Origin: Alphaproteobacteria bacterium
GTDB lineage: Bacteria > Pseudomonadota > Alphaproteobacteria > UBA828
Direction: 5' to 3'
Length of the DNA: 64,000 bases
NCBI GenBank assembly: GCA_011523425.1
Contig: WTGU01000069.1
Span: 1 to 64,000 of the forward strand
Shown: in pieces, positions 6,653 to 64,000 of the stretch
How the letters are laid out: every line of letters starts with the position of its first letter
How positions within the stretch are numbered: position 1 is the first letter of the stretch
The notes under the pieces: generated by a model
Databases searched by the model: none
Seen by the model: only the letters and a program-made list of their open reading frames with translations
Told to the model about the DNA's origin: nothing
Program-made: the position numbers and the translations under genes

Positions 6653-6653
6653 G

Positions 6654-8660: not shown

Positions 8661-8664
8661 GCCG

Positions 8665-9597: not shown

Positions 9598-10280
9598 GGC
9601 GTCCCTGCCTCCTCGCCGGCTGCCGCCGCCGTCTCCATGAAGCCCGCCAGCTCGCCGTAACCGACATGGCGATGGACGTAGCCGAGCCCCAGGCGCTCGG
9701 CCGCCACGCGGGCCCTGGCCTCGAGCGCGGCGTCGCGAACCTGCGAGATGTAGACGACGTTCGTGTAGTTGCCGAAGTAGTCGTCGCGCAGCTCCGGCCA
9801 GCGGTCGAGGCCCAGGCCTTCGATGATCAAGCGATCGAAGTGGCGCACCATGTAGTCGGTCAGGAAGAACTGGGTCGGGTCGTCGTCGGTGATGGCGGCA
9901 AACGCCTCCTGGCCGGTGTAGAAGGCGTAGCAGTGCGGCCCCTCGATGCGCCGCACCCTTTCCTCCTCGATCACCGCGTCGAGCAGACCGCCGGTGCCGC
10001 AATCGCCGTAGGCCACGAAGATCGCGCGGTAGCGGCGCCGGTTGGCGCGGATCTTCGCCCGCACCGCCTCGGGGATCAGGTGGGGCCGGTTGTGCAGCTT
10101 GGCCGGCAGGCAGGTGATGTCGAGATGGTCGAAGCCGTTGGCGGCGCGGAAGTCCACGATCTCGCGCGCCAGCGCGCCGCAGGCGATAACGAGCGCGCGC
10201 GCAGGGCCGGCGGAGGCGAACGCGGCCTCGTCGTCGACCGAGAGGTCGGTGTGCTCTGGCTTCGCAGTCGCGGCCGTCAT
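9594..10280 (-). CDS. DUF1638 protein of the corrinoid methyltransferase operon
   Basis: The 228-residue protein matches DUF1638: a short variable N terminus, then ALVIACGALAREI, LHNRPHLIPEAV, VAYGDCGTGGLLD and FFLTDYMVRHFD. Conserved Cys and His residues (IACGALA, YGDCGTGG, GPHCYAFY) suggest metal or corrinoid handling, but that is inference; no reaction is established for the family to my knowledge. It overlaps the pterin methyltransferase start by 4 bases and follows the corrinoid-protein gene by 9 bases. The operon context ties it to methylamine or betaine demethylation. Confidence 0.82.
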   Translation of the reverse strand: MTAATAKPEHTDLSVDDEAAFASAGPARALVIACGALAREIVDFRAANGFDHLDITCLPAKLHNRPHLIPEAVRAKIRANRRRYRAIFVAYGDCGTGGLLDAVIEEERVRRIEGPHCYAFYTGQEAFAAITDDDPTQFFLTDYMVRHFDRLIIEGLGLDRWPELRDDYFGNYTNVVYISQVRDAALEARARVAAERLGLGYVHRHVGYGELAGFMETAAAAGEEAGTP

Positions 10281-10289
10281 GCGCCGGCC

Positions 10290-11000
10290 TCAGGCGGCTC
10301 CCGCTTCGTCGGCGCGCAGGTTGTGCCGGCGCTTCATCAGCTCCTTGGCCGTCTCCACCGTGATCGCGGCATCGGAGCAGTAGGCGTCCGCGCCCACCGC
10401 CTTGGCGAACTCCTCGTTGAGCGGCGCGCCGCCCACCATCACCATGTAGTCGTCGCGGATGCCCTTCTCCTTCATCGTGTCGATCACGACCTTCATGTAG
10501 GGCATGGTCGTGGTCAGCAGCGCCGACATGCCGAGGATGTCGGGCTCGTGCTCCTCCAGCGCGGCCAGGTAGTTCTCCACCGGGTTGTTGATGCCGAGGT
10601 CGATGACCTCGAAGCCGGCGCCCTCCATCATCATCGTCACCAGGTTCTTGCCGATGTCGTGGATGTCGCCCTTGACGGTGCCGATCACCATCTTGCCGGC
10701 GCGCGGCGCTCCGGTCTCGGCCAGCAGGGGGCGGAGGATGAACATGCCGCCCTTCATGGCGTTGGCGGATTTCAGCACCTCGGGCACGAAGAGGATGCCG
10801 TCGCGAAAGTCGATGCCGACGATGCGCATGCCCTCGACCAGCGCCTCGGTCAGGATCCTGTAGGGCTCCCAGCCGCGCTCGAGCAGGATCCTCACGCCCT
10901 CCTCGATCTCCTCCTTGAGACCGTCGTAGAGGTCGTCGTGCATCTGCTCGACGAGGTCGCCGTCGTTCAGCTCGCTGAGAATGATCTCGTCGTCCGGCAT
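10290..11000 (-). CDS. B12-binding corrinoid protein (methyltransferase partner)
   Basis: This is the corrinoid shuttle between the MttB-like methyltransferase and the folate methyltransferase. It has the two-domain layout of MtaC/MtbC/MttC proteins: an N-terminal helical cap (EEGVRILLERGWEPY, LVEGMRIVGIDFRDG, FVPEVLKSANAMKGG) and a C-terminal cobalamin domain with the lower-ligand motif GDIHDIGKNL (DxHxxG), then SALLTTTM and VGGAPLNEEF. I chose the ATG at 11000 (236 residues), with AGGA about 11 bases upstream. An upstream in-frame start at 11039 would add 13 residues of no clear relation to the family. It is the first gene of the minus-strand operon. Confidence 0.92.
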   Translation of the reverse strand: MPDDEIILSELNDGDLVEQMHDDLYDGLKEEIEEGVRILLERGWEPYRILTEALVEGMRIVGIDFRDGILFVPEVLKSANAMKGGMFILRPLLAETGAPRAGKMVIGTVKGDIHDIGKNLVTMMMEGAGFEVIDLGINNPVENYLAALEEHEPDILGMSALLTTTMPYMKVVIDTMKEKGIRDDYMVMVGGAPLNEEFAKAVGADAYCSDAAITVETAKELMKRRHNLRADEAGAA

Positions 11001-11119
11001 GGGCCCTGTCCTGATCCGGGAAACGACTGCGCCGGGCATTCGGTGACGGCGCCGCGCGCCGCTAGCTGGAAGTCCTCTCGCGGATACGCGGCTCGGCGCC
11101 TGAACCCCGTCCCTTTTGA

Positions 11120-11177
11120 ATCATATGGCGACCGGCAGACTATTCCTCACACGACATCGCCTTGTTGCCCGGCGACA
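11120..11177 (-). promoter_or_regulatory. Predicted activator-dependent promoter with direct-repeat GlxA/ArgR-type operator
   Basis: On the minus strand the sequence reads TGTCGC-N8-AA-N5-TGTCGT, with the half-sites starting exactly 21 bases apart (complements at 11172-11177 and 11151-11156). This matches the direct-repeat consensus TGTCGC-N8-AA-N5 that I recall for Pseudomonas ArgR, an AraC-type regulator. Downstream is a good -10, TATGAT (11120-11125), with no -35 at the right spacing, as expected for an activated promoter. The likely regulator is encoded just upstream at 11255-12271. Transcription would start about 110 bases before the corrinoid-protein gene. The assignment is by pattern only. 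Confidence 0.5.
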
Positions 11178-11254
11178 AAGCGCGAATTATCGGCCGCCCC
11201 CGCCGCCCCGTTCCCTCTTCACGTCATGGCCGGGCTGAGGAACGGACAGGAACG

Positions 11255-12271
11255 CTAGAGGGGCGCCGGCCCCGGCAGGGCGACGTCGATCGAGCGATAG
11301 GGCGTGGACCCGCTGGTCAGCCGCTTGGTCTCGCGCGGCGCGTGCCCGAAATGCTGGCGATAGGACTTCGAGAAGTGCGAGGCCGAGACGAAGCCCGTGG
11401 CCAGCGCCACGTTCGTCACCGACATGCAGGTCTGCTGCAGCAGGGCGCGCGCCCGGTTCAGCCGCATGTCCAGGTAGTAGCGGCTGGGCGTGCAGTTCAG
11501 GTACTTCAGGAACAGCCTCTCGATCTGGCGGGTGGAGAGCCCGACCTCGCGGGCGAGCTCCGCCTGGCTCAGCGGCGCCTCGATATGCTCCGACATCAGG
11601 TTGATGCTGGAGAGCAGCCTGGGCTGGCTGACCGCGAGGCGGAGGCGCAGCGCCATCCTCTGGTGGTCGTCCTCGCCCCTGATCCGCTCGCACACCAGCC
11701 CCTCCGAGACCGCCGCGGCCAGCTCGTAGCCGTGGTCGCGGCTGATGAAGCTCAGCATCATGTCCGAAGCCGCCATGCCGCCGGCGCAGGTGTAACGGTT
11801 GCGGTCGATGACGAAGATGTCCTCGCTCACGTCGATCTCGGGGAAGTCCTCGACGAAGCCCGGCAGGTTCTCCCAGTGGATCGTGCAGCGATAGCCGTCG
11901 AGCAGCCCGAGCCGGGCCAGGACGTGGCTGCCGGTGCAGAGCGCGCCGATGTTCGTGCCGCGCCGCTCGATCTGGCGCAGCCAGATGGCGAGCCGCGAGT
12001 CCTCGAAGAGGTGGGTCTCGATGCCGCCGCAGAGGAAGACGGTGGAGAGCCGCGCCGCGGCGTCCCCCATCGCGAGATCGGCCGCGACGCTGAGGCCGGC
12101 CGAGGAGGCCACGGCGGTGCCGTCCATTGAGACGGTGCGCCACTCGTAGAGCGTGCGGCCGCTGACGTAGTTCGCGAGCCGCAGCGGCTCGATCGCGCTC
12201 GAGAGCGCGCCGAGCGAGAACTTCGGGACCATCAGGAAGCCGAACTGGGAGCCGGGGTCGGTGGTCTGCAT
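11255..12271 (-). CDS. GlxA-family transcriptional regulator (DJ-1/PfpI-like + AraC HTH)
   Basis: The N-terminal ~190 residues are a DJ-1/PfpI-like domain (FGFLMVPKFSLGALSSAIEP, GALCTGSHVLARLGLL, CAGGMAASDMML). The C-terminal ~100 residues are an AraC double helix-turn-helix (LAREVGLSTRQIERLF, NVALATGFVSASHFSKSY). This is the layout of GbdR, CdhR and ArgR, several of which control betaine, carnitine or amino-acid catabolism. It lies upstream of the corrinoid operon on the same strand, and a site of the expected type sits between them, so it probably activates that operon. ATG at 12271 was chosen; an upstream GTG at 12316 would add 15 residues, and neither has a strong ribosome site. Confidence 0.85.
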   Translation of the reverse strand: MQTTDPGSQFGFLMVPKFSLGALSSAIEPLRLANYVSGRTLYEWRTVSMDGTAVASSAGLSVAADLAMGDAAARLSTVFLCGGIETHLFEDSRLAIWLRQIERRGTNIGALCTGSHVLARLGLLDGYRCTIHWENLPGFVEDFPEIDVSEDIFVIDRNRYTCAGGMAASDMMLSFISRDHGYELAAAVSEGLVCERIRGEDDHQRMALRLRLAVSQPRLLSSINLMSEHIEAPLSQAELAREVGLSTRQIERLFLKYLNCTPSRYYLDMRLNRARALLQQTCMSVTNVALATGFVSASHFSKSYRQHFGHAPRETKRLTSGSTPYRSIDVALPGPAPL

Positions 12272-12445
12272 GGCATCGCCGCCGGTGAGGCGCCTCCCTG
12301 CGGCGTCGCTTGGCACACGAACGCCGCTCGTGCGTGACCTCTGTTCAAATTACGACACCGAGCGGCGGATAGGGCAACAGGATTCTCGCGCCGCGCTGTT
12401 CCTCGGCGACCGGCGCGCGGAAGGCGCCCGGAGTGGGCGGAGAGG

Positions 12446-13444
12446 TCAGGCGTTGACGTCGACCACGACGCGGCCGCGCACGCCGCCCGCGAGGATCTCC
12501 TCGCCCTGCTCCACCACCTCGGCGAGCGGGATGACCTCGGTCATCGCCGCGAGGGCCGAGCCCGGCAGGTCGCGGGCGAGCCGCTGCCACGCTTCCCGGC
12601 GCGGCGCGGGCGGGCACATGACCGAATCGATGCCGAGCAGGCTCACGCCGCGCAGGATGAACGGCATGACCGTAGTCTTCAGCCCCGCGCCGCCGGCGAG
12701 CCCGCAGGCCGCGACCGCGCCGCCGTAGCGCACCTCGGCGAGCACGTGGGCCAGCATCGCGCCGCCCACCGTGTCGACGGCGCCGGCCCAGTGCTCGGAG
12801 AGCAGCGGCTTCTCCGGCGCCTCGGCGCGGGCGCCGCGGGGCAGCACCTCGTGCGCACCGAGACCGGTAAGGTAGTCGCGGCACTCGTCGGCGCGGCCGG
12901 TGATGGCGACGGCCTCGTGGCCGAGGCGGGCAAGAAGGGCGACGGCGACGCTGCCGACGCCACCGGCGGCACCGGTGACGGCGACGGGGCCCGCGCCTGC
13001 GGCAACGCCCGCCCGCTCGAGCGCGATGACGCAGAGCATCGCGGTGAAGCCTGCCGTGCCGATGGCCGCCGCCCACTTGGTGTCGCAGCCCTCGGGCAGC
13101 GGCTCCAGCCACTTGGCCGGCACCCGCGCCCGTTGCGCGAGCCCGCCGGGGTGCCGCTCGCCGACGCCCCAGCCGGTGAGTACCACGGCCTGCCCCGGCG
13201 CGAAGTCGGGCGACTCGCTGCTTTCGACCGTGCCGGCGAAGTCGATGCCGGCGGTCATCGGCGGCCGCCTGATGATCGGCGCGCGCCCGGTGAGGGCCAG
13301 GCCGTCCTTGTAGTTCAGGCAGGAATAGTCGATCCGCACCGTGACCTCGCCCTCCGGCAGGTCGGCCTCGGTGAGGGTCCTGATCCCGGCGACGGTCTCA
13401 CCGTCCTGCCGATCGACGACAAGGGCTCTGTAGCTGTCTGACAT
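12446..13444 (-). CDS. acuI: Acryloyl-CoA reductase / YhdH-type quinone oxidoreductase
   Basis: This 332-residue NADPH-dependent medium-chain reductase resembles AcuI/YhdH: YRALVVDRQDGETVAG at the N terminus, LNYKDGLALTGR, and the dinucleotide motif VTGAAGGVGSVAVALLARLG. AcuI reduces acryloyl-CoA to propionyl-CoA, which matters in DMSP use and for detoxifying acrylate in marine Alphaproteobacteria; whether this copy has that role is inference. The ATG at 13444 starts the family N terminus; the longer open frame upstream lies in the divergent promoter region before thrS. It is transcribed away from thrS and shows no operon partner. Confidence 0.87.
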   Translation of the reverse strand: MSDSYRALVVDRQDGETVAGIRTLTEADLPEGEVTVRIDYSCLNYKDGLALTGRAPIIRRPPMTAGIDFAGTVESSESPDFAPGQAVVLTGWGVGERHPGGLAQRARVPAKWLEPLPEGCDTKWAAAIGTAGFTAMLCVIALERAGVAAGAGPVAVTGAAGGVGSVAVALLARLGHEAVAITGRADECRDYLTGLGAHEVLPRGARAEAPEKPLLSEHWAGAVDTVGGAMLAHVLAEVRYGGAVAACGLAGGAGLKTTVMPFILRGVSLLGIDSVMCPPAPRREAWQRLARDLPGSALAAMTEVIPLAEVVEQGEEILAGGVRGRVVVDVNA

Positions 13445-13529
13445 CGTGCGCTCCCACCCCGCATTGCCTAACGCCGTCTCAATATCCGCCCGCGCGGGGT
13501 CAGGCAACCGTGGCGGGCACCCGCCCGCC

Positions 13530-13557
13530 TTGACAGGCGAAGCGCCGCGGCTAGAGT
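13530..13557 (+). promoter_or_regulatory. Predicted promoter of thrS-infC
   Basis: A perfect -35 TTGACA (13530-13535) is followed after 16 bases by TAGAGT (13552-13557), four of six matching the -10 consensus. The spacing suits a housekeeping sigma promoter. It lies 41 bases before the thrS start in the short divergent gap from acuI. No experimental start is known. Confidence 0.55.
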
Positions 13558-13598
13558 GCCGCGACTTTCGCGCAAACTGAGGACTCGACGCCGCCGCA

Positions 13599-15539
13599 AT
13601 GCCGACACTTTCGTTGCCGGACGGCGCGGCGCGCTCGTTCGATGCCCCCGTCACCGGCGCCGACCTCGCGGCAGCGATCGGGCCCGGACTCGCCAAGGCG
13701 GCCCTCCTCGTCGAGGTCGATGGCGAGCTGCGCGATCTCTCCCGCCCCATCGAGGAGGACGCAGCGGTGCGCGTGATCACCGCGCGCGATACGGACGCGC
13801 TCGAGGTCATCCGCCACGACGCCGCCCACCTGCTGGCGGAGGCGGTCAAGGAGCTCTACCCCGACGTCCAGGTGACCATCGGCCCGGCCATCGAGGACGG
13901 CTTCTACTACGACTTCGCCCGCGACGAGCCCTTCACGCCCGCCGACCTGGAGCGGATCGAGGCCCGCATGGCCGAGATCAAGGCGCGCGACGAGACCGTG
14001 GCCCGCGAGGAATGGGCGCGCGACGACGCGGTGAAGATGTTCGAGGGCATGGGCGAGCACTACAAGGCGGAGCTGATCGCCGCGATCCCCGACGGTGAGC
14101 CCATCACCCTCTACCGCCAGGGCGGCTTCGTCGATCTCTGCCGCGGCCCCCACCTGCCGTCGACCGGCAGGGTGGGCGCCTTCAAGCTCCTCAAGGTCGC
14201 CGGCGCCTACTGGCGGGGCGATGCCCGCAACGAGATGCTGCAGCGCATCTACGGCACGGCCTGGCCCGACGACAAGCAGCTCAAGGCCTATCTGCACCGC
14301 CTGGAGGAGGCCGAGAAGCGCGACCACCGGCGGCTCGGACGCGAGATGGGCCTCTTCCACTTCCAGGAGGAGGCGCCAGGCGCCGCCTTCTGGCATCCCA
14401 AGGGCTGGACGCTCTTCCGCACGCTCGTCGACTACATGCGGATTCGGCAGGACCGTGCCGGCTACCAGGAGGTGAGCACACCCGACATGATGGACAGCGT
14501 GCTCTGGGAGGCCTCCGGCCACTGGCAGACCTTCCGCGAGCACATGTTCACCTCGCAGACCGAGGACGGCCGGCACTACGCGGTCAAGCCGATGAACTGC
14601 CCCGGCCACGTGCAGGTCTACAAGCGCGGCATCAAGAGCTACCGCGACCTGCCGCTGCGCATCTCGGAGTTCGGCAAGGTCCACCGCTACGAGCCGTCGG
14701 GCGCGCTGCACGGCCTGCTCAGGGTGCGCGCCTTCAGCCAGGACGATGCCCACATCTTTTGCACGCCGGAGCAGACCGAGGCGGAGTGCCGGGGCGTCAC
14801 CGAGCTCTGCCTCGACATCTACCGCGACTTCGGCTTCGAGGACGTGCAGATCAAGTTCGCCGACCGGCCGCCCAAGCGGATCGGCGCAGACGAGGTGTGG
14901 GACCAACTCGAGGCGGCGCTCATGGGCGCGCTCGAGAGCATGGGGATCGACTACAGCCACAACCCCGGCGAGGGCGCGTTCTACGGGCCGAAGCTCGAGT
15001 TCGTGCTGCGCGACGCCATCGGCCGCGAATGGCAGTGCGGCACGCTCCAGGTCGATCTCAACCTGCCGGAGCGCCTCGACGCCACCTATGTCGGCGAGGA
15101 CGGCCAGCGGCACCGGCCGGTGATGCTGCACCGGGCGCTGTTCGGCTCCCTCGAGCGCTTCATCGGCATCCTGCTGGAGCATTACGGCGGCCACCTGCCG
15201 CTCTGGCTGTCGCCGACCCATGCCGTGGTGGCGACCATCACCGACCAGTGCGCCGACTATGCGCAGGCCGTGGCCGCGCGGCTCGGCGATGCCGGGCTTC
15301 GCGTCGACGCCGACCTGCGCAACGAGAAGATCGGCTACAAGGTGCGCGAGCACAGCGCGGCCAAGGTCCCGCTCATCCTCGCCGTGGGCGCGCGGGAGGC
15401 CGAGGCCGGCACCGTCTCGGTGCGCCGGCTCGGCTCCAGGGATCAAGAAAATCTTGCGCTCGACGAGGCCGTCGCTAGGATTCGCCGGGAGGTGGCCGGC
15501 CCGCTCGGCGGTACGGCCGTGCAGGAGGGCACGGGCTGA
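13599..15539 (+). CDS. thrS: Threonyl-tRNA synthetase
   Basis: The 646-residue class II synthetase charges tRNA-Thr. Domains in order are TGS (residues 1-60), the editing domain with [10 protein letters not shown] (an HxxxH zinc pair) and IEDGFYYDF, the catalytic core with [10 protein letters not shown] (zinc Cys) and [16 protein letters not shown] (motif 2), and the C-terminal anticodon-binding domain ([19 protein letters not shown]). Length and start match the family. It begins the thrS-infC-rpmI-rplT-pheS-pheT block. Confidence 0.97.
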
Positions 15540-55163: not shown

Positions 55164-55239
<76 letters not shown>

Positions 55240-55717: not shown

Positions 55718-58165
55718 ATGGCTGAGGTTGGGGCCGATCCAGGCGGCTTGGGCGCCGGAGCGGCCGCGGGCGGCAGGCCGCTCCAGCCGTCGCTCTGGAG
55801 CGCCCTCCCCCACTTCCTGCCGCTTCTGATCTTTCCGCTGATCGTCAACGCCGCGCTGCAGGGCAGCTGGTGGATCGCGGCGCCGTTCGTCTTCTTCATG
55901 CTTGCGGGTCCCCTGGATGTCGCGCTCGGCGCGGACGAGAAGAACATGGACCCGGCGAAGACGCCCGAGAGGCGCCTGTTCTGGCACAATCTGCCGGTCT
56001 GGGGGTGGGCGTTTCTCTGGCCCCTGACCTTCGCCTTCACGCTCTGGCACATCCTCGTCGTCGGCCATCTGGCCCTCTGGGAGACCGCGTTGATGGCGGT
56101 GGTGCTCGCGACCGAGGCACAGGCGGTCTTCATCGTCGGCCACGAGCTGGTCCATCGGCGGCACACGTGGGAGCGCCGCCTCGGCGAGTTTCTGCTCGCG
56201 TCCGCCTCCTACCCGCACTACGCCACGGAGCACATCTACATTCACCACGCCCTCGTCGGCACGCCGCTGGACGTGGGGTCTGCGCCCAAGGGCGAGAGCC
56301 TCTGGCGCTATTTCCCGCGCGAGCTGGCGAGCAACATCCTCGGCGCCTGGCGCGTCACCCGCGAGCGGCTGGCACGCCGCCGCCTGCCCATGTGGCACTA
56401 CAGCAATCCCTTCTGGCGGTACGGCTTCGAAACCGCTCTCTGGTACGCGCTGATCTACTGGATGGGCGATTGGTGGGCAGTCCTGATCTACGCCGTACTC
56501 TGCCTCGGCGTCGTGCTCTCGATGAAGATCAGCAACTACATCCAGCACTACGGCCTGCGCCGCATCCGCATGCCCAACGGCCGCTTCGAGAAGGTCCGGC
56601 CCCGGCATTCGTGGAGCGCCAGCTGCAGGTTCAGCAACTGGATGTTCTACAACATGCAGCGCCATCCGGATCACCACGCGGTGGCGAGCCGGCCGTATGC
56701 GCTGCTGCAGCATCGCGGCGAGGACGAATCGCCGCAGTTGCCGGGGAGCTACGGCAAGATGTTCGGCTTGGCGGTGCGACCGAAGCGCTGGTTCCGGACC
56801 ATGGACCCGCTGGTCGATCAGTGGCGCGCCCACTTCTACCCCGAGATCGAGGACTGGAGCCCCTACGACAGCGCGGTTGCCGAAGCCCGGCCGGAGGCCT
56901 TCGACGCCATCGTCGAGATCTTCGGCGCCGCGCCGCGGCTCGCCGGGCTGATCGAGCGAAGCCCGGAGCTGCTCGACAGCCTCAAGAGCCGGGAGTTTAC
57001 CGATCTCGATCTCCCGGGCGGCTTCGGGCCGGACCTGGAATTCGAGGTGACCGCCCGCAGTGGCCTCACGCGCCTCTACTGGACGCACGAGTTCGGCGTC
57101 GCGGAGATGACCGAACAGATCGCCGAAGCGCCCGTTCAGGATGTGAGCGACACGGCGGACGCCGTGCGCAACTGGTCGAACGACAAGACCTTCCAGATCG
57201 GCATCCACATGCTGCGCGGCAATCTCACCCCGATCGAGGCGGGAACGGCGCTCGCGAATGTCGCGGAGGCCGCGATTGCCGCCGTGCTCGAGGCGGTCGA
57301 CGAGGAGATCGCCGAGACCCGCGGCCCGCGCGGCGAGGGAGGGATCGCGGCGGTGGCTCTGGGCGATCTGGCAAGCCGGGACGTGGCGCCCGGCATGGCG
57401 CTGGACCTCCTGTTCGTGCATGGGGGCGGCTCCGCCGGCGAGCAGGAGGCGACGTGCCGCCGCTACGGCGATGCGCTCCGGCGGCTGTCGCGCGGCAGCC
57501 TGCTGTTCGCGGACGCGCCGCGCGGTGGAAAGGGACGGGCCGCGAGAGCGCTCTCGGAGTTCGCCGATGGCGGCTGGAGCGCCGGATCGGCGGACGAGCT
57601 GCTGGAGCTGACACGCGCGCGCTGCGTCTTCGAATCGGGCGAGAGCGGGATCGGCCGGCGCTTCGACGAGGCGCGGCAGGCGCTGCTCGGCCGCGGCGAC
57701 GCGCACGCGGCGCTCGTCGCCGAGCTGCGGGGCGGAGCCGGCGGCACGGCCGCACCGGGGCTTGCCGCGCTCGACGAGATGACCGGCGGCCTCGACGACG
57801 TCGAGCGCACTGCCCGGCTTCTCCAGCTGACCGGCCCCGGAGACGCCGTGGACGACCCGGCGCCCAGGGCGGTGGCAGTCTTCGAAGCTGCAGGAGCGCA
57901 TGGCGCGATCCCCGGCGACGGCGCGGAGGCCTTGATCGAGGCCGCCACGATGTGGCGCACCCTGCGCGGCATTCTGCGGCTGATTGCGGACGACGGCGTC
58001 GTGGACGGTGCAGCGGCGACCGGGGTCAAGGCCGCCATTGCGCAGGCCGCCGGGCTGGACGATTTCGACGCGCTCGCCAACACGATCCGCGATAGGGCAT
58101 CCCGCGCCGCAGCCGCGCGCGATGCAGTGAACGGAACGCGTGGCCCCGCTGCCGGCACGAGCTGA
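55718..58165 (+). CDS. AlkB-type di-iron monooxygenase fused to a degenerate GlnE-like nucleotidyltransferase domain
   Basis: The 815-residue protein has two parts. Residues ~1-380 are an alkane-1-monooxygenase-like membrane protein with the histidine clusters HELVHRRH (142-149), EHIYIHH (171-177) and QRHPDHH (314-320), plus NYIQHYG (273-279). Residues ~394-800 resemble the adenylyltransferase half of GlnE: FGAAPRLAGLIERSPELLDS, FQIGIHMLRGNLTPIEAG and VALGDLASRDVAPGMALDLL. The GlnE active-site pattern S-D-L-D is M-A-L-D here (560-563), so one metal Asp is lost. The next gene, for the YcaO protein, starts one base after the stop, so hydroxylation of the cluster's product is the likely role. 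The function of the second domain is unknown. Confidence 0.8.
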   Translation: MAEVGADPGGLGAGAAAGGRPLQPSLWSALPHFLPLLIFPLIVNAALQGSWWIAAPFVFFMLAGPLDVALGADEKNMDPAKTPERRLFWHNLPVWGWAFLWPLTFAFTLWHILVVGHLALWETALMAVVLATEAQAVFIVGHELVHRRHTWERRLGEFLLASASYPHYATEHIYIHHALVGTPLDVGSAPKGESLWRYFPRELASNILGAWRVTRERLARRRLPMWHYSNPFWRYGFETALWYALIYWMGDWWAVLIYAVLCLGVVLSMKISNYIQHYGLRRIRMPNGRFEKVRPRHSWSASCRFSNWMFYNMQRHPDHHAVASRPYALLQHRGEDESPQLPGSYGKMFGLAVRPKRWFRTMDPLVDQWRAHFYPEIEDWSPYDSAVAEARPEAFDAIVEIFGAAPRLAGLIERSPELLDSLKSREFTDLDLPGGFGPDLEFEVTARSGLTRLYWTHEFGVAEMTEQIAEAPVQDVSDTADAVRNWSNDKTFQIGIHMLRGNLTPIEAGTALANVAEAAIAAVLEAVDEEIAETRGPRGEGGIAAVALGDLASRDVAPGMALDLLFVHGGGSAGEQEATCRRYGDALRRLSRGSLLFADAPRGGKGRAARALSEFADGGWSAGSADELLELTRARCVFESGESGIGRRFDEARQALLGRGDAHAALVAELRGGAGGTAAPGLAALDEMTGGLDDVERTARLLQLTGPGDAVDDPAPRAVAVFEAAGAHGAIPGDGAEALIEAATMWRTLRGILRLIADDGVVDGAAATGVKAAIAQAAGLDDFDALANTIRDRASRAAAARDAVNGTRGPAAGTS

Positions 58166-58166
58166 C

Positions 58167-60494
58167 GTGACGGATCGCCCTGCCCGATCCGGTTCGCGCC
58201 GCGGCATCCTGACGACGACATCCGCTGCCGATCACGATCCGATCGAGCGGCCGGCGCTGACGCCGCACCTCGAATTCCGGTCACTCGGCGAAGACCGTGC
58301 GCTGCTGGTGTCGGACTCCTTCAACACGTTGCTGCACGGGCGGATCCACTGCGATCTGCTGCCCCTTCTCGACGGCCGGCGCGCGCGGGACGAGATCGTT
58401 GCCGCCCTCGCGGGCGTCCATGCGGGCGCCGAGGTGGAGCAGGCGCTGGCCTCGCTCGCCGCCAGGGGATACGTCGTCTCCGGCGCGCATGCCATGGACC
58501 GCTCCCGGGCGGCGTTCTGGTCGGCGCTGGGCGCCTCGCCCCGCCGGGTGGAGGAGCGGCTCGGCGCATCGACGGTCGCGGTCGAGGGAGACGACGGCCG
58601 CCTCGTCCGCGGCCTGGGCGCCATGGGCGTGACGGTGGCCGCAGATCGCCCGACGCTCGTCGCCGTCGTCTGCGCCGACTATCTCGACGAGCGGCACGAC
58701 TCTCTCAATCGCCGCCACCTTGCCGCCCGCACGCCCTGGATGCTGGTCCGGCCCGCGGGCGTGCAGCCGCTCTTCGGACCCGTCTTCCGGCCGGCGGAAC
58801 AGGGCCCGTGCTGGGCCTGCCTCGCCTACCGGATGCACGGCAATCAGGAGGTGCACACCTTCCTGCGCAATTTGGGCGGCGAGGATGCGGCCTTCGTGCC
58901 TTTCGCCGCCGTGCCCACCACCCTGGATGCGGTGGCGGGCCTCGCCGCGGCCGAGATCGCCAAGTGGCTGGTCCTGGGCGACGCGGCGCCACTCCACCAG
59001 AGGGCGATCTCGCTGGACCTCGCCAGCCTCGAGAGCGCGCACCATCCGACCATGCGCCGGCCGCAGTGCCCCGTCTGCGGCGACGAGGCGCGCCATCGCG
59101 CCGACCGGCCGGCGCAGCCGGTACGCCTCGGCCCGAGCCCGAAGGGCACGCGCAACAGCGGTGGCGTGCGCGCGATCTCACCGGAGGAAACCCTCGCCCG
59201 TTACCGGCATCTGATCAGCCCGGTGAGCGGGATCGTCACATGGGTGGCGCGCACCACGGCGGAGTCCGACCCCTGGCTGCACGTCCACTGGGCCGGCAGC
59301 AATCTGGCGCTCCGGATCAGGAGCCTGAGCTCGCTCAGGCGCAGCCTGCGGAGCAAGAGCGCGGGCAAGGGGAGCACCGCGCAGCAGTCCGAGGTAAGCG
59401 CGCTTTGCGAGGCGATCGAGCGCTATTGCGGCGCCTTCCACGGCGACGAGATCAGGCGGCCGGCGCGGTTATCGGATTTTGCGGCAGCCGGCGGCGCGGA
59501 GGCGATCCACCCCAACCAGGTTCAGCTCTTCAGCGAACGGCAACTGGACCACGCAGACGAGATCAACGCCCGCGGCCATCCCTACAACGTAGTGCCGCCG
59601 CGCTTCGATCCCGAGAAGGAGATCGACTGGTCGCCGGTGTGGTCGCTCACGCAAGGCCGGCACCGCTATCTCCCCACGTCCATGCTCTACGGCATGACGC
59701 CCGAGCAGCGGGCGCATGCGGACCTCTGGGCGGATTCGAACGGATGCGCCGCCGGCAACACGCTCGAAGAGGCGATCCTGCAGGGGTTCTACGAGCTGGT
59801 GGAGCGCGATGCCGTCGCCATCTGGTGGTACAACCGGCTGCGCCTGCCCGCGGTGGAGCTCGGGAGCTTCAGCGACGACTACCTGTCCACCGCGCCCGAC
59901 TATTACCGGGGCCGCAATCGCGACATGTGGGTGCTGGACGCGACCTCAGACCTCGGCATCCCCGCCTTCGTCGCGCTCTCGCGCCGCACCGACGTCGAGA
60001 GCGAGGACATCATCTACGGCGCCGGCGCGCACGCGGACCCGCGTATCGCAGCGCTCCGCGCGGTGTGCGAGATGAACCAGTGCCTGACCTGGGTGCCAAG
60101 CCCGGGCGACGGCGGCGGCCGCTACGGCGTGGACGATCCCATGTGCCTGTGGTGGTGGAAGAACGCGACGCTCGCGGACCATCCCTACCTGGCGTCGGCG
60201 CCGGATGCCACGCCGCGCCGCCGGGCGGACTATCCGGTCCCCGACGGCGCCGACCTGAGAGAGGACGTGGAGCGCTGCCGCGCGCTGGTCGAGGCCCGGG
60301 GCATGGAGTTCCTCGTTCTCGACCAGACCCGGGCGGACGTCGGGATGCCGGTGGTTCGGGTGATCGTGCCGGGCCTGCGCCACTTCTGGGAACGCTTCGC
60401 GCCGGGGCGGCTCTTCGACGTGCCGGTGGAGATGGGCCGGCGCGAGTCTCCCCTGGCGGAGTCCGACCTCAATCCGGTCCCGGTCATCGCCTGA
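58167..60494 (+). CDS. Fused E1-like/YcaO TOMM cyclodehydratase
   Basis: The 775-residue protein is a fused azoline-forming cyclodehydratase. The N-terminal ~100 residues look like a winged-helix leader-recognition (RRE) domain (SFNTLLHGRIHCDLLPLLDG). Next is an E1-like part with zinc tetrathiolate Cys pairs CWAC (215-218) and CPVC (301-304). From about residue 342 is the YcaO domain, with SEVSALCEAIERYC (from 408) and AILQGFYELVERDA for ATP/Mg binding. It ends NPVPVIA, near the Pro-rich C terminus of SagD-type enzymes. It would turn Cys residues of a precursor into thiazolines. Start GTG at 58167; the upstream frame overlaps the previous gene. Confidence 0.88.
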   Translation: MTDRPARSGSRRGILTTTSAADHDPIERPALTPHLEFRSLGEDRALLVSDSFNTLLHGRIHCDLLPLLDGRRARDEIVAALAGVHAGAEVEQALASLAARGYVVSGAHAMDRSRAAFWSALGASPRRVEERLGASTVAVEGDDGRLVRGLGAMGVTVAADRPTLVAVVCADYLDERHDSLNRRHLAARTPWMLVRPAGVQPLFGPVFRPAEQGPCWACLAYRMHGNQEVHTFLRNLGGEDAAFVPFAAVPTTLDAVAGLAAAEIAKWLVLGDAAPLHQRAISLDLASLESAHHPTMRRPQCPVCGDEARHRADRPAQPVRLGPSPKGTRNSGGVRAISPEETLARYRHLISPVSGIVTWVARTTAESDPWLHVHWAGSNLALRIRSLSSLRRSLRSKSAGKGSTAQQSEVSALCEAIERYCGAFHGDEIRRPARLSDFAAAGGAEAIHPNQVQLFSERQLDHADEINARGHPYNVVPPRFDPEKEIDWSPVWSLTQGRHRYLPTSMLYGMTPEQRAHADLWADSNGCAAGNTLEEAILQGFYELVERDAVAIWWYNRLRLPAVELGSFSDDYLSTAPDYYRGRNRDMWVLDATSDLGIPAFVALSRRTDVESEDIIYGAGAHADPRIAALRAVCEMNQCLTWVPSPGDGGGRYGVDDPMCLWWWKNATLADHPYLASAPDATPRRRADYPVPDGADLREDVERCRALVEARGMEFLVLDQTRADVGMPVVRVIVPGLRHFWERFAPGRLFDVPVEMGRRESPLAESDLNPVPVIA

Positions 60495-60504
60495 GAGGCC
60501 GACA

Positions 60505-61806
60505 ATGAAGAGCCCCATCGACGCAGCAGAATTTCTCGTGTCGAAAGCCGGCGACGACGACGCGTTTCGTGACCGTCTTCTCGCAAACCCCCAGGAAACC
60601 ATCGAAGCGGAGCTCGGCGTTACCCTTGACGGAGATCATCGGATTCACGTGCACGAAGACAGCTATTCGGCGACCCATCTCGTGCTTCCGCCGCGCGAAA
60701 AATACACTCGAGAAGAACGGGAGGAAGCAAGAGGCGGTGCGGCGTCGCTCGAGTTTCTTCGCAAGACAATGCACGACCCCGCGCCTCCCCGTCGTCCGCC
60801 TGCGCCCGGACGGTCGCGATCCCGAGAGGTCGTCCCTACCGCCGAGGCACTGGCGAGAGAGGCCGAAGAAAGCATCGGTCTCGGTCTCGAATTCCTGAAG
60901 TCGACCATCGACGAATTCGGGGCCTGGCACTGCATCCGCTTCAACACCGCCGACCCGGACATTCCCCGGCATTTCGAGAGGCCCCCCTTCGTTTCGGCTC
61001 TCTGCGTGCTTGCCTTGGAGCGTTGCCCTGACGCGCGCGCAAAGGCCATGTGCGCTGCCACCAGGGCGTATCTTGTCGGCTCGATCGAATATCCCGGGCT
61101 ATGGCGCTACTACCGCCATTTGCCGCAAGACCTCGACAGCACGGCGCTCTGTTCGCTCGTCCTCCGGGCTCATCCCTGGATTTTGCTGGGCAGAAACGTT
61201 CCGAAAATACTGGCCAATCGCGACGACGAGGGTCGTTTCCTGACATGGCTCCTGGCAGAAGACGAGCCCACTGTCGTGTCGACCTTTCGCATCGAAGCCG
61301 ACCCCGTCGTCAATGCGAACGTCATCGCCTATCTCGGCGACCACCCCGAAACCGAACCCGCCCAACGCTGGCTGGAAGCCCTGCTTGGCGAAGGCGGCGA
61401 GACGAATTCGTCCAAATGGTATCCGGATACCGTCGCGATCTACTATGCGATCAGCCGCGCCGTGGTTCGCGTGCAGCCTGCTCTCGATCGCCTGCGCCCG
61501 GTGCTCGCGGAGCGCATCCTGGGTTTGCGCGACGGGACGGGAGAATTCGGCAACGTTCTCCAGACCGCCCAGGCCGTGTCGGCGCTCCACAATGTCGGAC
61601 GCCTCGAAAACGATCACGCCAAACGCCAGGCGGAAAAGTTGATCGATTTGCAAGGTGACGACGGTAGCTGGCCGGAGCTTCTCGCCTTCGGCGACCAGTC
61701 CGTCAAGTGGGGTACGGCAGGCCGGATAGGGCACGGCTCCGAAGCCGTGACGTCCGCGTTCTGCATCGAGGCTCTGGCACGTCTCGTCGAGACATTGCGG
61801 GCCTGA
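60505..61806 (+). CDS. NHLP leader peptide fused to a terpene-cyclase/prenyltransferase-repeat domain
   Basis: Residues ~1-75 match NHLP (nitrile-hydratase-like leader) RiPP leaders: FRDRLLANPQETIEAELGVT, IHVHEDSYSATHLVLPPR. This is followed not by a core peptide but, after a Pro/Arg-rich linker, by a ~310-residue alpha-helical repeat domain like squalene-hopene/class II terpene cyclases. It shows DLDSTA (209-214), close to the catalytic DxDDTA, VVNANVIAYLGD, and a QW-type QGDDGSW (383-389). The gene starts 10 bases after the YcaO gene. It may be an enzyme delivered to the cluster's leader-binding domain. The product ends 102 bases before the next gene. Confidence 0.78.
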   Translation: MKSPIDAAEFLVSKAGDDDAFRDRLLANPQETIEAELGVTLDGDHRIHVHEDSYSATHLVLPPREKYTREEREEARGGAASLEFLRKTMHDPAPPRRPPAPGRSRSREVVPTAEALAREAEESIGLGLEFLKSTIDEFGAWHCIRFNTADPDIPRHFERPPFVSALCVLALERCPDARAKAMCAATRAYLVGSIEYPGLWRYYRHLPQDLDSTALCSLVLRAHPWILLGRNVPKILANRDDEGRFLTWLLAEDEPTVVSTFRIEADPVVNANVIAYLGDHPETEPAQRWLEALLGEGGETNSSKWYPDTVAIYYAISRAVVRVQPALDRLRPVLAERILGLRDGTGEFGNVLQTAQAVSALHNVGRLENDHAKRQAEKLIDLQGDDGSWPELLAFGDQSVKWGTAGRIGHGSEAVTSAFCIEALARLVETLRA

Positions 61807-61908
61807 GGGAGGCGCCGTTACGACATGCTCGTCCGCACGGGCGTTCGCAAGCGCCCTCTCGCTGAAGCCGATTCGACTCCCGCACCCGTTGTCGCGTGAG
61901 GAAGCACC

Positions 61909-63027
61909 ATGGACGTTGACGAGGCAGTCACGCTTACCCAGGACCGTCTTGCCCAAGAGGGCGGCACCATGGCCGACCTGCTCGGGCACTTTCGAAGCGG
62001 GATTTCGCCGGTTCTCATCGGCGATTCCGAATGGGAGGACATACTCGACTGCGCCGTGAAACTTCCCATCACCATGGGCGCTCTGCCGTTCGGCTTTGAG
62101 CTGCCGCTGCATGCACGCAGGCCACAGGCTGATTTCGGTGTTTCGCTCGCGAGCGGAACCAGAACGGCGGCGTTTTTCGAAGAGCGCGCTCGGACCGACC
62201 AGTCGGATGGAACCGCGAAAGCGATCGTGCAGTTGTTCAGACAAATGGATGACGAAGACTCACCGCTGCGTGACATTGTCGGCCGCAAGTTGATGCTGGA
62301 ATTCGACATCGGCTCGGCGCGGGAAAGCAAGATATCGCTTCCGGGCATGTTCCTGCGGCCGGGCGAACGCCCCATCATCGGCGCCCGTGGTCAGGCGGAC
62401 GATGTCGCCATGGTGGTCGACGCGCTCGCTTCCTGCGTCGGCTGGGAGGTGACCGACGCCGAGCGGGCGACCGTCGAACGCGTTTACCTGGCGCAGCCTG
62501 GAGAGACGCGCATGGATTCGTTCGGTGTGTTCCCGTCTCGCTCGCGGGCGATCCGCCTGGCGATCATGGGCTTCAGATCGGGGCAGGAAACATGTTCCTA
62601 TCTTGAAGACACGGGCTGGCCGGGCCGAATCCAGACCGTCGCCTCCGTGATTGCGCGCTTCAGGGAGCGCGCGAACATCGTCAGGGTCGGGGCGAACATC
62701 GACGTGCAGGAAGAGGGTATCGGTCCGACGCTCGGCCTCACGCTCATCGTCAAGCAGAGATACACGAAGGATTCACGCTATTGGCTCGACGGCCTGACCG
62801 ATTGGGACCCGTTCCTGGCGGCACTGAGCCACGAGGACCTCGTCGTTCCGGAGAAGCTTGCGGCGCTTGCCGACTGGGTCTCGAGACCGACAACGCTTTT
62901 TGCGAAGTCCGGGCAGTATGTACTGCTGCGCGGCATTCACCACATAAAGCTGGTCATATCCGGCAATCGGCTCCGACACGCGAAAGCCTACGTGTTCATG
63001 GTGCTTTCCGGAGCGGTCTCGGCTTAG
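61909..63027 (+). CDS. Uncharacterised protein of the RiPP-like cluster
   Basis: I do not recognise this 372-residue soluble protein. It has no signal peptide or membrane helix. Distinct segments are LPITMGALPFGFELPLHA, KLMLEFDIGSARESKISLPG, RQMDDEDSPLRD and a C terminus reading LLRGIHHIKLVISG. Alternating beta-rich segments and the terminal HIKL element loosely recall ABBA-type aromatic prenyltransferases, but this is speculation. GAGGAAG lies about 6 bases before the ATG. Position suggests it works with the cyclase-like protein upstream on the cluster's product. Confidence 0.7.
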   Translation: MDVDEAVTLTQDRLAQEGGTMADLLGHFRSGISPVLIGDSEWEDILDCAVKLPITMGALPFGFELPLHARRPQADFGVSLASGTRTAAFFEERARTDQSDGTAKAIVQLFRQMDDEDSPLRDIVGRKLMLEFDIGSARESKISLPGMFLRPGERPIIGARGQADDVAMVVDALASCVGWEVTDAERATVERVYLAQPGETRMDSFGVFPSRSRAIRLAIMGFRSGQETCSYLEDTGWPGRIQTVASVIARFRERANIVRVGANIDVQEEGIGPTLGLTLIVKQRYTKDSRYWLDGLTDWDPFLAALSHEDLVVPEKLAALADWVSRPTTLFAKSGQYVLLRGIHHIKLVISGNRLRHAKAYVFMVLSGAVSA

Positions 63028-63036
63028 AGACGAAGG

Positions 63037-63064
63037 TGCCCCCCGGCGTTCGCGAAGGGGGGCA
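63037..63064. terminator. Bidirectional hairpin between convergent cluster genes
   Basis: Perfect 8-base arms TGCCCCCC (63037-63044) and GGGGGGCA (63057-63064) enclose a 12-base loop between the plus-strand cluster and the minus-strand precursor gene. No T-run follows on either strand, so termination strength is uncertain. Confidence 0.5.
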
Positions 63065-63133
63065 GTTCAGGCCGCGCACGAACGCGGATTCGGAATGTTC
63101 CGCTTGTGACCGGCTACACGCCGGCCATGGGAT

Positions 63134-63385
63134 CTACCAGCAACAGCACAGCCCGGCCGAGATGGCCTCGAGCTGCTCCTCGCTGATGTTCGGGTCCGGC
63201 GGCAACGCGAGATGCACCGTCTGCATGTCGCTCTCATGGACCTTGATCGTCATCGACTCGGGAATGGTGATGCCCAGCTCCTCGGAGATGGTGCTCTTCG
63301 GATCTGCGAGAAGCTGCTGTCGGAAATCCGCATCCAGAGCAGACTTCTCGACTATCTGCTTCAGCATTTCGTCGCCACTTCTCAT
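63134..63385 (-). CDS. NHLP-family RiPP precursor with predicted core Leu-Cys-Cys-Cys-Trp
   Basis: The 83-residue peptide has an NHLP leader (FRQQLLADPKSTISEELGIT, IKVHESDMQTVHLALPPDP) ending in ISEEQLEAISAG, the usual pre-cleavage helix and small-residue site (typically GG or AG). Only LCCCW follows before the stop. Three adjacent Cys are ideal substrates for the YcaO cyclodehydratase encoded nearby. The ATG at 63385 has GAGGGAG at good spacing; a GTG 21 bases upstream would include the ribosome site in the gene. A weak promoter candidate (TTGACC at 63439-63444, 17 bases, TACTCG) lies upstream. Confidence 0.85.
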   Translation of the reverse strand: MRSGDEMLKQIVEKSALDADFRQQLLADPKSTISEELGITIPESMTIKVHESDMQTVHLALPPDPNISEEQLEAISAGLCCCW

Positions 63386-63539
63386 GGCAATGCTCCCTCG
63401 GTTCACGCACGATACCGAGTAACACGATCATTTTTCCCGGTCAAGCGCCTGAAGTAACGGAATTTATTATGGTATCGACAAGTTTATCTTATGACGCCGG
63501 AATGCCTGGTGTGGCGTACGGCGGCCGCGCGCCGGCTTC

Positions 63540-64000
63540 TCAGGACTCGGTCGCGGCCCGCTTCGCAGATCGCCGGTCGAGCGCCGTCAGCAGCGCCGGC
63601 AAGAGCGTCAGGTCGGCAACGAGCGCAAAGGCGATGATCAGCGCGGTAAGGACCCCGACCTGGGCGGTCGGAACGAACGGAGAGAACACGAAGATGAGAA
63701 AACCGGCGACGAGCACGACCGTCGTCGTGAACAGGGCACGGCCGCTCGTGTCGAAGGCGTAGCGCACCGCCTCGTCCGGGTCATGGCCGAATTCATGCCG
63801 CGCACGGCGGTACTTGCTGAGGAAATGCACCGTATCGTCGACGACGATGCCTATGGTCATGGCCACCACGACAGACAGCGAAAGACCGACCTGTCCGACC
63901 GCCAATCCCCAGACGCCGAAGCCCAGCACGGCGGGAAGCAGGTTGGGAACGATGCTTATCAGGCCCAGCCGCAGCGAGCGTAGAGCGAAGAGGAGAATGG
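63540..64000 (-). CDS. RND/MMPL-family transporter, N-terminal part beyond the window
   Basis: The C-terminal ~153 residues are visible; the frame stays open to the right edge. It reads LRSLRLGLISIVPNLLPAVL, then IGIVVDDTVHFLSKYRRA (the RND/MMPL/SSD Asp pair in membrane helix 4-like position), FTTTVVLVAGFLIFVFSPF and ALVADLTLLPALLTALD. This is typical of the last membrane bundle of MMPL-type exporters. It lies 154 bases upstream of the precursor gene on the same strand and is a good candidate exporter for the cluster's product. Confidence 0.88.
   Translation of the reverse strand, partial: ILLFALRSLRLGLISIVPNLLPAVLGFGVWGLAVGQVGLSLSVVVAMTIGIVVDDTVHFLSKYRRARHEFGHDPDEAVRYAFDTSGRALFTTTVVLVAGFLIFVFSPFVPTAQVGVLTALIIAFALVADLTLLPALLTALDRRSAKRAATES

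What the first reader, a model, noticed from the sequence alone, without database searches (positions are those of the whole stretch)
55718..64000. Candidate unusual RiPP cluster combining YcaO cyclodehydratase, AlkB-type oxygenase, NHLP-tagged terpene-cyclase-like protein and an ultra-short CCCW core
The sequence shows a fused E1/YcaO enzyme, two separate NHLP leaders (one a precursor, one on an enzyme), an AlkB-fusion oxygenase, an unknown protein and an RND exporter within 8.3 kb. The known biochemistry of YcaO/NHLP systems predicts thiazoline formation on the three Cys. Combining that with an AlkB oxygenase and a terpene-cyclase-like protein suggests a lipidated or prenylated, hydroxylated thiazole peptide. 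I know of no described family with this gene set.
Basis: partly seen in the sequence, partly recalled or inferred. Interest (0 to 1): 0.93.

Follow-up and report, generated by a model that had tools for sequence, protein, structure and literature searches.

The report
Sponge peptide cluster with terpene enzymes
This is a copy of the srp gene cluster, known from marine-sponge bacteria for a mini-peptide with three thiazolines and a brominated tryptophan; by predicted fold and conserved motif it also carries a likely prenyltransferase and a likely terpene cyclase, so its product would probably be a terpene-bearing peptide.

Summary
In detail: E1/YcaO fusion, leader peptide ending LCCCW, a leader-like domain on an enzyme, AlkB-GlnE fusion, an unnamed protein, the end of an RND exporter. 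"No described family" is wrong: this is the published sponge srp cluster (SrpE core LCCCW; SrpC makes three thiazolines; SrpI brominates Trp; PMC10858898, PMC10286304), and a Trp halogenase lies just beyond the window (C73:74137-75411). New here: (1) the unnamed protein is confidently modelled as an abba-barrel prenyltransferase (pLDDT 90; all 50 listed PDB matches are such enzymes); (2) the toroid aligns with drimenol synthase over its catalytic DxDTT motif (E 1.3e-06); (3) the AlkB-GlnE fusion is real and recurrent (54 of 54 rows with AlkB), its adenylyltransferase half degenerate; (4) relatives bear labels of seven phyla; (5) another leader-peptide cluster type pairs relatives of both terpene enzymes with cores ending in Trp or Tyr. 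Best reading: a secreted, brominated tris-thiazoline peptide likely carrying a prenyl group cyclised in place; the fused enzyme NctPC is a published precedent. The terpene steps, their site and AlkB's target are inferred, and the 2021 srp paper could not be read.

The parts
55164..55239 (+). tRNA-Lys(CTT), left boundary marker 480 bp before the cluster (context, not a functional part)
   Evidence: ARAGORN; no copy of 11 or more bases of it found in the cluster or right flank
55718..56872 (+). AlkB-type membrane diiron monooxygenase domain of the fusion; nine histidines H142, H146, H172, H176, H177, H277, H316, H319, H320 kept
   Evidence: FA_desaturase PF00487 E 7e-26; PDB alkane monooxygenases 8f6t E 5e-50 and 8sbb E 8e-39; His kept in 48 of 48 rows with letters there, or 52 of 52 (that these nine are the diiron ligands is recalled)
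56873..58165 (+). GlnE C-terminal-like domain in the same ORF, with degenerate adenylyltransferase DxD
   Evidence: PF03710 and PRK14108 matches; both catalytic Asp kept in 0 of 52 fusion rows (which Asp are catalytic is recalled)
58140..60494 (+). YcaO cyclodehydratase with N-terminal winged-helix/E1-like leader-binding part (SrpC-type); exact start codon not settled
   Evidence: TIGR03604, TIGR03882, PF02624; winged helix PF21084 residues 42-112
60505..60738 (+). NHLP leader-like domain at the N-terminus of the terpene-cyclase-like protein
60823..61806 (+). Single toroid-like domain resembling the beta domain of class II terpene cyclases
   Evidence: profile A4 versus PDB: drimenol synthase 9mhs E 1.3e-06, 9m7d 7.6e-06, squalene-hopene cyclase 6e-04; SQHop_cyclase_C in 45 of 45 members at E <= 0.1, best 2.2e-07; the window's own copy is below the cut-off
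61129..61143 (+). DLDST motif (residues 209-213) on the DxDTT catalytic motif of drimenol synthase
   Evidence: alignment; D209, D211, S212 in 53 of 53, T213 in 51 of 53; central D-S-T also kept in the 37-40% identical stand-alone relatives L130-L132
61909..63027 (+). Predicted abba-barrel (PT-barrel) aromatic prenyltransferase, no family match by sequence
   Evidence: AF2 model pLDDT 89.9, pTM 0.89; Foldseek and VIA-align against PDB; no Pfam or NCBIfam match for the window's protein
63134..63406 (-). SrpE-type proteusin precursor (90 aa), NHLP leader plus LCCCW core
   Evidence: TIGR03793; 8tb1 proteusin leader E 3e-11; core AGLCCCW in 62 of the 63 loci with a precursor
63137..63151 (-). Core peptide LCCCW (five codons before the stop)
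   Evidence: read from the sequence; identical to the published SrpE core
63540..64000 (-). C-terminal end of an MMPL/RND transporter (780 aa; continues to C73:65882)
   Evidence: runs off the window

Best explanation
This locus is a copy of the marine-sponge srp proteusin cluster, and besides the YcaO enzyme and a tryptophan halogenase it encodes a predicted aromatic prenyltransferase and a likely class II terpene cyclase, so its product would be a brominated tris-thiazoline peptide that likely carries a terpene cyclised in place. Step 1 (published for SrpE/SrpC; only sequence match here): the three Cys of LCCCW become thiazolines on the YcaO protein; that the NHLP leader docks on its E1-like part is inferred from family. 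Step 2 (published for SrpI; only gene presence here): the halogenase at C73:74137-75411 brominates the C-terminal Trp. Step 3 (inferred from predicted fold): the 372-aa abba-barrel protein transfers a prenyl group to the core, most likely to the Trp indole. Step 4 (inferred from the aligned DxD(S/T)T motif): the NHLP-tagged toroid protonates and cyclises that prenyl chain; its leader-like domain would serve for docking in the complex. Step 5 (inferred from family): AlkB hydroxylates a methyl or alkyl carbon, probably on the terpene or on Leu, with the degenerate GlnE-like half as a scaffold. Step 6 (inferred from family): the C39-peptidase ABC exporter cuts after the Ala-Gly before LCCCW and exports the core; RND, LolA-like and DUF1302-like proteins carry the hydrophobic product through the envelope.
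Against: No prenylated or cyclised srp product is known to me, and no activity was measured here. The prenyltransferase call is by fold only: no Pfam/NCBIfam prenyltransferase family matches it, and TM-scores are modest (0.37-0.50 by query). The conserved charged residues I name are picked from a family with 85 of 372 invariant columns, so they prove little. The full-length cyclase model is poor (pLDDT 47.5), so that call rests on profile and motif. In G007 (96% complete, 7% contaminated, same genus) a 46% identical prenyltransferase stays although the core is LCCCGL with no aromatic residue, so the acceptor need not be Trp; cyclase and halogenase were not found there. Six of 50 srp genomes show no halogenase match, five of them with an LCCCW core, one of these on a 4.3-Mb record (L052/G081); of the 44 with a match, G064 has only a 127-residue piece and G083 and G095 have it in two pieces. 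Fusion copies are in two frames in G090 and interrupted by stops in G098 and G100. No rubredoxin for AlkB was seen among the cluster genes scanned. 17 of 80 loci show no precursor in the stretch fetched.
Confidence: 0.6

Rival explanations
1. [quoted passage not shown] the cyclase then acts on that prenyl chain.
For: CCCG-X sister clusters (L119; second copies in L078 and L083) keep a 46-50% identical prenyltransferase although their cores lack a C-terminal aromatic residue. Two SAM methyltransferases stand near it in L119, and two ORFs that look alike, not scanned, in L078; a methyltransferase-prenyltransferase set recalls AgeMTPT (title seen in a reference list; its methyltransferase part is recalled). 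Bromination and prenylation would otherwise share one indole.
Against: Most of the closest folds by VIA-align are indole/Trp enzymes by title. Wherever the cyclase protein and a precursor were both found near it, a core ending in W or Y is present (W in LCCCW loci and in L116, Y or W in L130-L132); the cyclase was not found in G007, whose core ends in L.
Confidence: 0.25
2. The terpene enzymes make a separate terpenoid, or act on a carrier, and the srp peptide itself is only the brominated tris-thiazoline LCCCW.
For: Only cyclodehydration and bromination are described for srp in the passages seen of PMC10286304 and PMC10858898. The drimenol synthase match cyclises free farnesyl diphosphate (PMC9128629 abstract passage).
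Against: The cyclase carries an NHLP leader-like domain; peptide-modifying prenyltransferase plus cyclase is known from NctPC; the pair recurs in another precursor-bearing cluster type with a different core. No HAD phosphatase domain or prenyl diphosphate synthase was seen among the cluster genes scanned.
Confidence: 0.12
3. The product works mainly as a metal ligand: the CCC block is the functional unit and the tail residue is secondary.
For: CCC is kept in every core of the LCCCW and CCCG-X types seen while what follows it varies (W, GW, GL, GI, GN, GQ).
Against: No metal-uptake receptor was seen among the cluster genes scanned, and the exporters include a hydrophobe/amphiphile-type RND protein. 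The cores of L130-L132 have no Cys. It does not exclude the main reading.
Confidence: 0.15
4. The AlkB-GlnE fusion or the whole cluster is an assembly or annotation artefact, or AlkB is a bystander.
For: The window genome is a fragmented assembly of 159 contigs; AlkB and GlnE are unrelated by function; a few copies elsewhere are in two frames or hold stops.
Against: One-frame fusion in 54 of 54 rows with AlkB, including megabase records (L052, L075, L116); an ordinary GlnE lies elsewhere in the same genomes; 47 of 50 srp genomes versus 0 of 397 others.
Confidence: 0.03

Closest known systems
Marine-sponge srp proteusin clusters (SrpC/SrpE/SrpI; Nguyen et al. 2021, JACS, cited by the papers seen, itself not held)
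   Same: LCCCW core on an NHLP leader, YcaO cyclodehydratase and Trp halogenase in one cluster; one of the closest relatives comes from a Spongia bin.
   Different: No difference in gene set was shown; the 2021 gene list could not be compared. Added here: predicted prenyltransferase, terpene cyclase motif, AlkB-GlnE fusion and their recurrence.
NctPC (peptide geranylgeranyltransferase-cyclase; passage of PMC13290415)
   Same: abba-barrel prenyltransferase plus a monodomain terpene cyclase acting on a peptide Trp.
   Different: One fused protein there; here two separate proteins, the cyclase fused to an NHLP leader-like domain, in a YcaO and halogenase pathway. Its sequence was not at hand to compare.
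Bacterial drimenol synthases (AsDMS; passages of PMC9128629)
   Same: Single class II beta domain with DxDTT, fused behind another domain.
   Different: HAD-like partner domain and free farnesyl diphosphate as substrate there; NHLP domain here.
Cyanobactin prenyltransferases (PatF) and indole prenyltransferases (MpnD, DMATS, PriB)
   Same: Predicted fold.
   Different: Only 6-15% identity in the listed matches; no shared sequence family model found.
Alkane monooxygenase AlkB, including the 8f6t structure
   Same: Domain family and nine conserved His.
   Different: C-terminal partner is a degenerate GlnE-like domain (recalled: rubredoxin in the 8f6t protein).

Membership tests
srp sponge proteusin cluster | NHLP precursor with LCCCW core | tested here: met
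srp sponge proteusin cluster | YcaO cyclodehydratase (SrpC) | tested here: met
   TIGR03604 and TIGR03882 above cut-off; direct comparison with the SrpC sequence not possible (not at hand)
srp sponge proteusin cluster | Flavin-dependent Trp halogenase (SrpI) in the cluster | tested here: met
   PF04820 154.7 bits, cut-off 21, at C73:74137-75411; halide choice not testable; SrpI sequence not at hand
srp sponge proteusin cluster | Origin in a sponge microbiome | tested here: inconclusive
srp sponge proteusin cluster | Three thiazolines and bromo-Trp actually formed | not testable with these tools
   published for SrpE, not measured here
abba-barrel (PT-barrel) aromatic prenyltransferases | Barrel of alpha-beta-beta-alpha units | tested here: met
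   predicted model
abba-barrel (PT-barrel) aromatic prenyltransferases | Prenyl transfer to an aromatic or peptide acceptor | not testable with these tools
   no assay
abba-barrel (PT-barrel) aromatic prenyltransferases | Detectable sequence similarity to a curated prenyltransferase family | tested here: not met
   48 members scanned against Pfam and NCBIfam, no prenyltransferase family; not a defining feature of the fold, so it lowers the family name, not the fold call
Class II terpene cyclases (beta-domain type) | DxD(D/T)T catalytic motif with central Asp | tested here: met
   DLDST aligned to DLDTT; D211 in 53 of 53; fourth place is Ser, not Asp or Thr
Class II terpene cyclases (beta-domain type) | alpha/alpha toroid fold | tested here: inconclusive
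   SQHop_cyclase_C match in 45 of 45 members at E <= 0.1 (window member below cut-off) but the AF2 model is poor, pLDDT 47.5
AlkB membrane diiron monooxygenases | Nine His ligands and AlkB similarity | tested here: met
   (that these are the ligands is recalled)
GlnE adenylyltransferase | Catalytic Asp pair of the nucleotidyltransferase | tested here: not met
   0 of 52 fusion rows keep both
Proteusins / NHLP peptides | Nitrile-hydratase-like leader | tested here: met
   TIGR03793 70.7 bits, cut-off 50.9; 8tb1 E 3e-11

The most novel reading that the evidence does not exclude
The srp clusters, found in sponge-type symbionts labelled as seven phyla, make a brominated tris-thiazoline meroterpenoid peptide: an abba-barrel prenyltransferase loads an isoprenoid on the leader-bound core, a class II terpene cyclase that wears its own leader-like domain cyclises it on the peptide, and AlkB oxidises it. 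Another leader-peptide family, without a YcaO match nearby, uses the same prenyltransferase-cyclase pair on cores ending in Tyr or Trp, so 'meroterpenoid proteusins' are a class of their own.
Probability: 0.5. Interest if true: 0.82.

Novelty: new variant of a known kind. Interest (0 to 1): 0.62.

Why it matters
Passages of PMC9426513 cite srp among clusters conserved across sponge species, yet I know of no end product. If the terpene reading holds, searches for the plain bromopeptide ([M+H]+ 651.088) would miss it: expected values with 79Br are 787.213 (C10), 855.275 (C15) or 923.338 (C20), each +15.995 if hydroxylated. These are directly testable in sponge extracts. It would also give RiPP engineering a leader-tagged terpene cyclase and a peptide prenyltransferase family with no match in the two family libraries searched, and it would explain why a hydrophobe-type RND and a LolA-like protein sit in a peptide cluster.

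Tried and rejected

Mobile-element idea: tRNA-Lys stands 480 bp left of the cluster, but no repeat of 11 or more bases of it was found in the 19-kb stretch or right flank; of 21 stretches scanned only the window's own had a tRNA; one short direct repeat only. Not supported.

Halogenase tracks the C-terminal Trp? Only partly: not found in G007 (core CCCGL), but also not in L116's genome (CCCGW), nor in six of 50 srp genomes, five with LCCCW and one with no precursor seen. Not a clean rule.

Papers: the 2021 srp paper (PMC8780398) and the MstE paper (PMC7613056) are not held, so I could not see whether the terpene genes were already annotated there. Ten paper searches were made; none of their listings showed a prenyltransferase or terpene cyclase assigned to srp. 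Only listings, abstracts and passages were seen; no paper was read whole.

Full report
What is in the window. On the left lie a tRNA-Lys, a galactarate/altronate-dehydratase-like gene, an M24-peptidase gene and a methyltransferase gene that show no link to the cluster.

It is srp. PMC10858898 and PMC10286304 (passages) state that the sponge proteusin SrpE has the core LCCCW, that YcaO SrpC turns its three Cys into thiazolines and that SrpI brominates the C-terminal Trp with help of the leader. The window's precursor ends AGLCCCW and its leader matches the solved proteusin leader 8tb1 (E 3e-11). So the claim of an undescribed family falls. PMC9426513 (passages) also notes srp-like clusters in two of three sponge species.

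How widespread. A scan of named genomes gave 219 relatives of the 372-aa gene; the best 80 were fetched (L037-L116). Within the fetched stretches: YcaO 71 of 80, NHLP-toroid 68, precursor 63, precursor and YcaO together 56, AlkB-GlnE 50, halogenase 35; 37 of the 80 stretches are shorter than 21 kb. Whole-genome checks: halogenase 44 of 50 genomes (one a 127-residue piece, two in two pieces), fusion 47 of 50 at E <= 1e-100 (42 in one match over both halves, two of these with stops inside; five in parts, most at contig ends, one in two frames), cyclase protein 45 of 48. Among 22 genomes near the window's searched for both, the fusion at E <= 1e-100 is in the window genome, G003, G005 and G007, the same ones that hold the 372-aa gene, and in no other, including G001, G002, G004 and G006 of the same genus. 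Of 397 other genomes of the phylum none had either gene (in the rows shown the quick first look passed on at most 2 or 5 candidates per genome). The tree of the 372-aa protein covers records labelled as seven phyla (Pseudomonadota, Acidobacteriota, Gemmatimonadota, Nitrospinota, Myxococcota, Verrucomicrobiota, Binatota; G007 as a label of its own), with 11 label changes where 7 is the least, and a strongly supported Vicinamibacteria-Binatia pair: some transfer between phyla, then inheritance within them. That tree is of the quick kind, with 30 of 81 inner branches open.

The core is frozen. Of 63 loci with a precursor, 62 end AGLCCCW and one (L116) ends LCCCGW. The CCCG-X type is seen in L116, L119 (CCCGL) and in extra copies in L075, L078, L083, L092, L097, L098. 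L117 and L118 are repeats of L037 and L045 and were not counted; the window itself is not among the 80.

The toroid. Its profile without the NHLP part hits drimenol synthase 9mhs at E 1.3e-06 over 221 positions, placing DLDST on the enzyme's DLDTT; then squalene-hopene cyclases. PMC9128629 (abstract and passages) reports that the middle Asp of DxDTT is critical for cyclisation. That Asp would be D211, present in 53 of 53 (129 of 433 columns are invariant in this set) and also in the 37-40% identical stand-alone relatives, which read EVDST or DLDST. The full-length model is poor.

Another family with the same pair. Searching for the cyclase protein showed stand-alone relatives in G080, G094 and G096. 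In L130-L132 they lie next to a 26-28% identical relative of the prenyltransferase, NHLM exporters and an NHLP precursor, with no match to YcaO, halogenase or AlkB-GlnE in those stretches. The precursors end GGIAPTDDSY (twice) and GGFAPGGDSW. hhalign joins the two prenyltransferase families over 338 columns, E 6.5e-43. A CmcJ/NvfI oxygenase stands in L132 and a PhyH-type one in L130. That two different leader-peptide systems keep prenyltransferase and cyclase together, on cores ending in an aromatic residue, is the best support for action on the peptide. Three loci are few, and L130 and L131 are near-copies; these genomes also hold srp.

Precedent. PMC13290415 (passages): NctPC is an abba-barrel prenyltransferase fused to an MstE-like cyclase; it puts geranylgeranyl on Trp and cyclises it. 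So the chemistry is not unheard of.

AlkB-GlnE. In the loci held, every AlkB row is in one ORF with the GlnE-like half (54 of 54). AlkB keeps nine His and matches 8f6t and 8sbb. The GlnE half keeps both catalytic Asp in 0 of 52, though the ordinary GlnE of this genus also lacks the first one there in the four checked. In a tree with 14 ordinary GlnE and 23 chosen fusions, the fusion is one group, and the genus' own GlnE lies between it and six other GlnE, which suggests the fusion arose once from a GlnE near this lineage; taxon sampling is thin and the tree unrooted.

Against. G007 (96% complete) keeps the prenyltransferase relative with a core lacking any aromatic residue, and no cyclase and no halogenase was found there; near it stand two methyltransferases and a FAD enzyme. 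So the acceptor may be other than Trp, and the step order is open. No activity was measured. Whether the 2021 srp paper already names these enzymes could not be checked.

Verdict. Locus: almost certainly an srp cluster. Product: likely a terpene-bearing, brominated tris-thiazoline peptide; prenylation and cyclisation inferred, acceptor site and AlkB target open.

Noticed in passing
L130 (G080:C196), L131 (G094:C140), L132 (G096:C87): Another NHLP cluster type: stand-alone terpene-cyclase-like protein beside a prenyltransferase relative, a CmcJ/NvfI (L132) or PhyH-type (L130) oxygenase, cores IAPTDDSY and FAPGGDSW, no YcaO match.
   Followed up: partly
L119 4565-19901 (G007, same genus); L078 14914-21108; L083: CCCG-X sister clusters: L119 has YcaO, a prenyltransferase relative, two SAM methyltransferases and a FAD enzyme, with no halogenase or cyclase found in G007; L078 and L083 hold a second precursor and prenyltransferase relative.
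   Followed up: partly
L116 17358-18821 (-): SagB-type peptide dehydrogenase (TIGR03605 147.5 bits) next to the CCCGW cluster: thiazolines there may be oxidised to thiazoles.
   Followed up: partly
L092 13104-16324: Second precursor (CCCGI) flanked by a UbiA prenyltransferase and an MpaB/rubber-oxygenase-like protein, families that act on isoprenoid chains (recalled).
   Followed up: partly
L005 (G000:C95) 5678-13813: Paralogous RND, an outer-membrane-like and a LolA-like protein (by likeness to the cluster's own) beside an amine oxidase and a P450 fused to a GPP34 domain.
   Followed up: partly
G000 C95:72248-72415 (L015): A weak third NHLP-like match in the genome (E 0.003) inside a 214-aa frame.
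   Followed up: no
G064 C1:1077842-1078222 (L125): Only a 127-residue stretch of halogenase found in a genome that keeps other srp genes.
   Followed up: no
ordinary GlnE of the window's genus (L021, L022, L024, L033): The C-terminal adenylyltransferase site has Pro in place of the first catalytic Asp in the four checked.
   Followed up: partly
window 55164-55239: tRNA-Lys 480 bp left of the cluster; no end repeat found.
   Followed up: yes
17 of 80 loci (e.g. L072, L081, L088, L093; several Gemmatimonadota): No precursor in the fetched stretch although the enzymes are there; no CCCW-stop end found either.
   Followed up: partly
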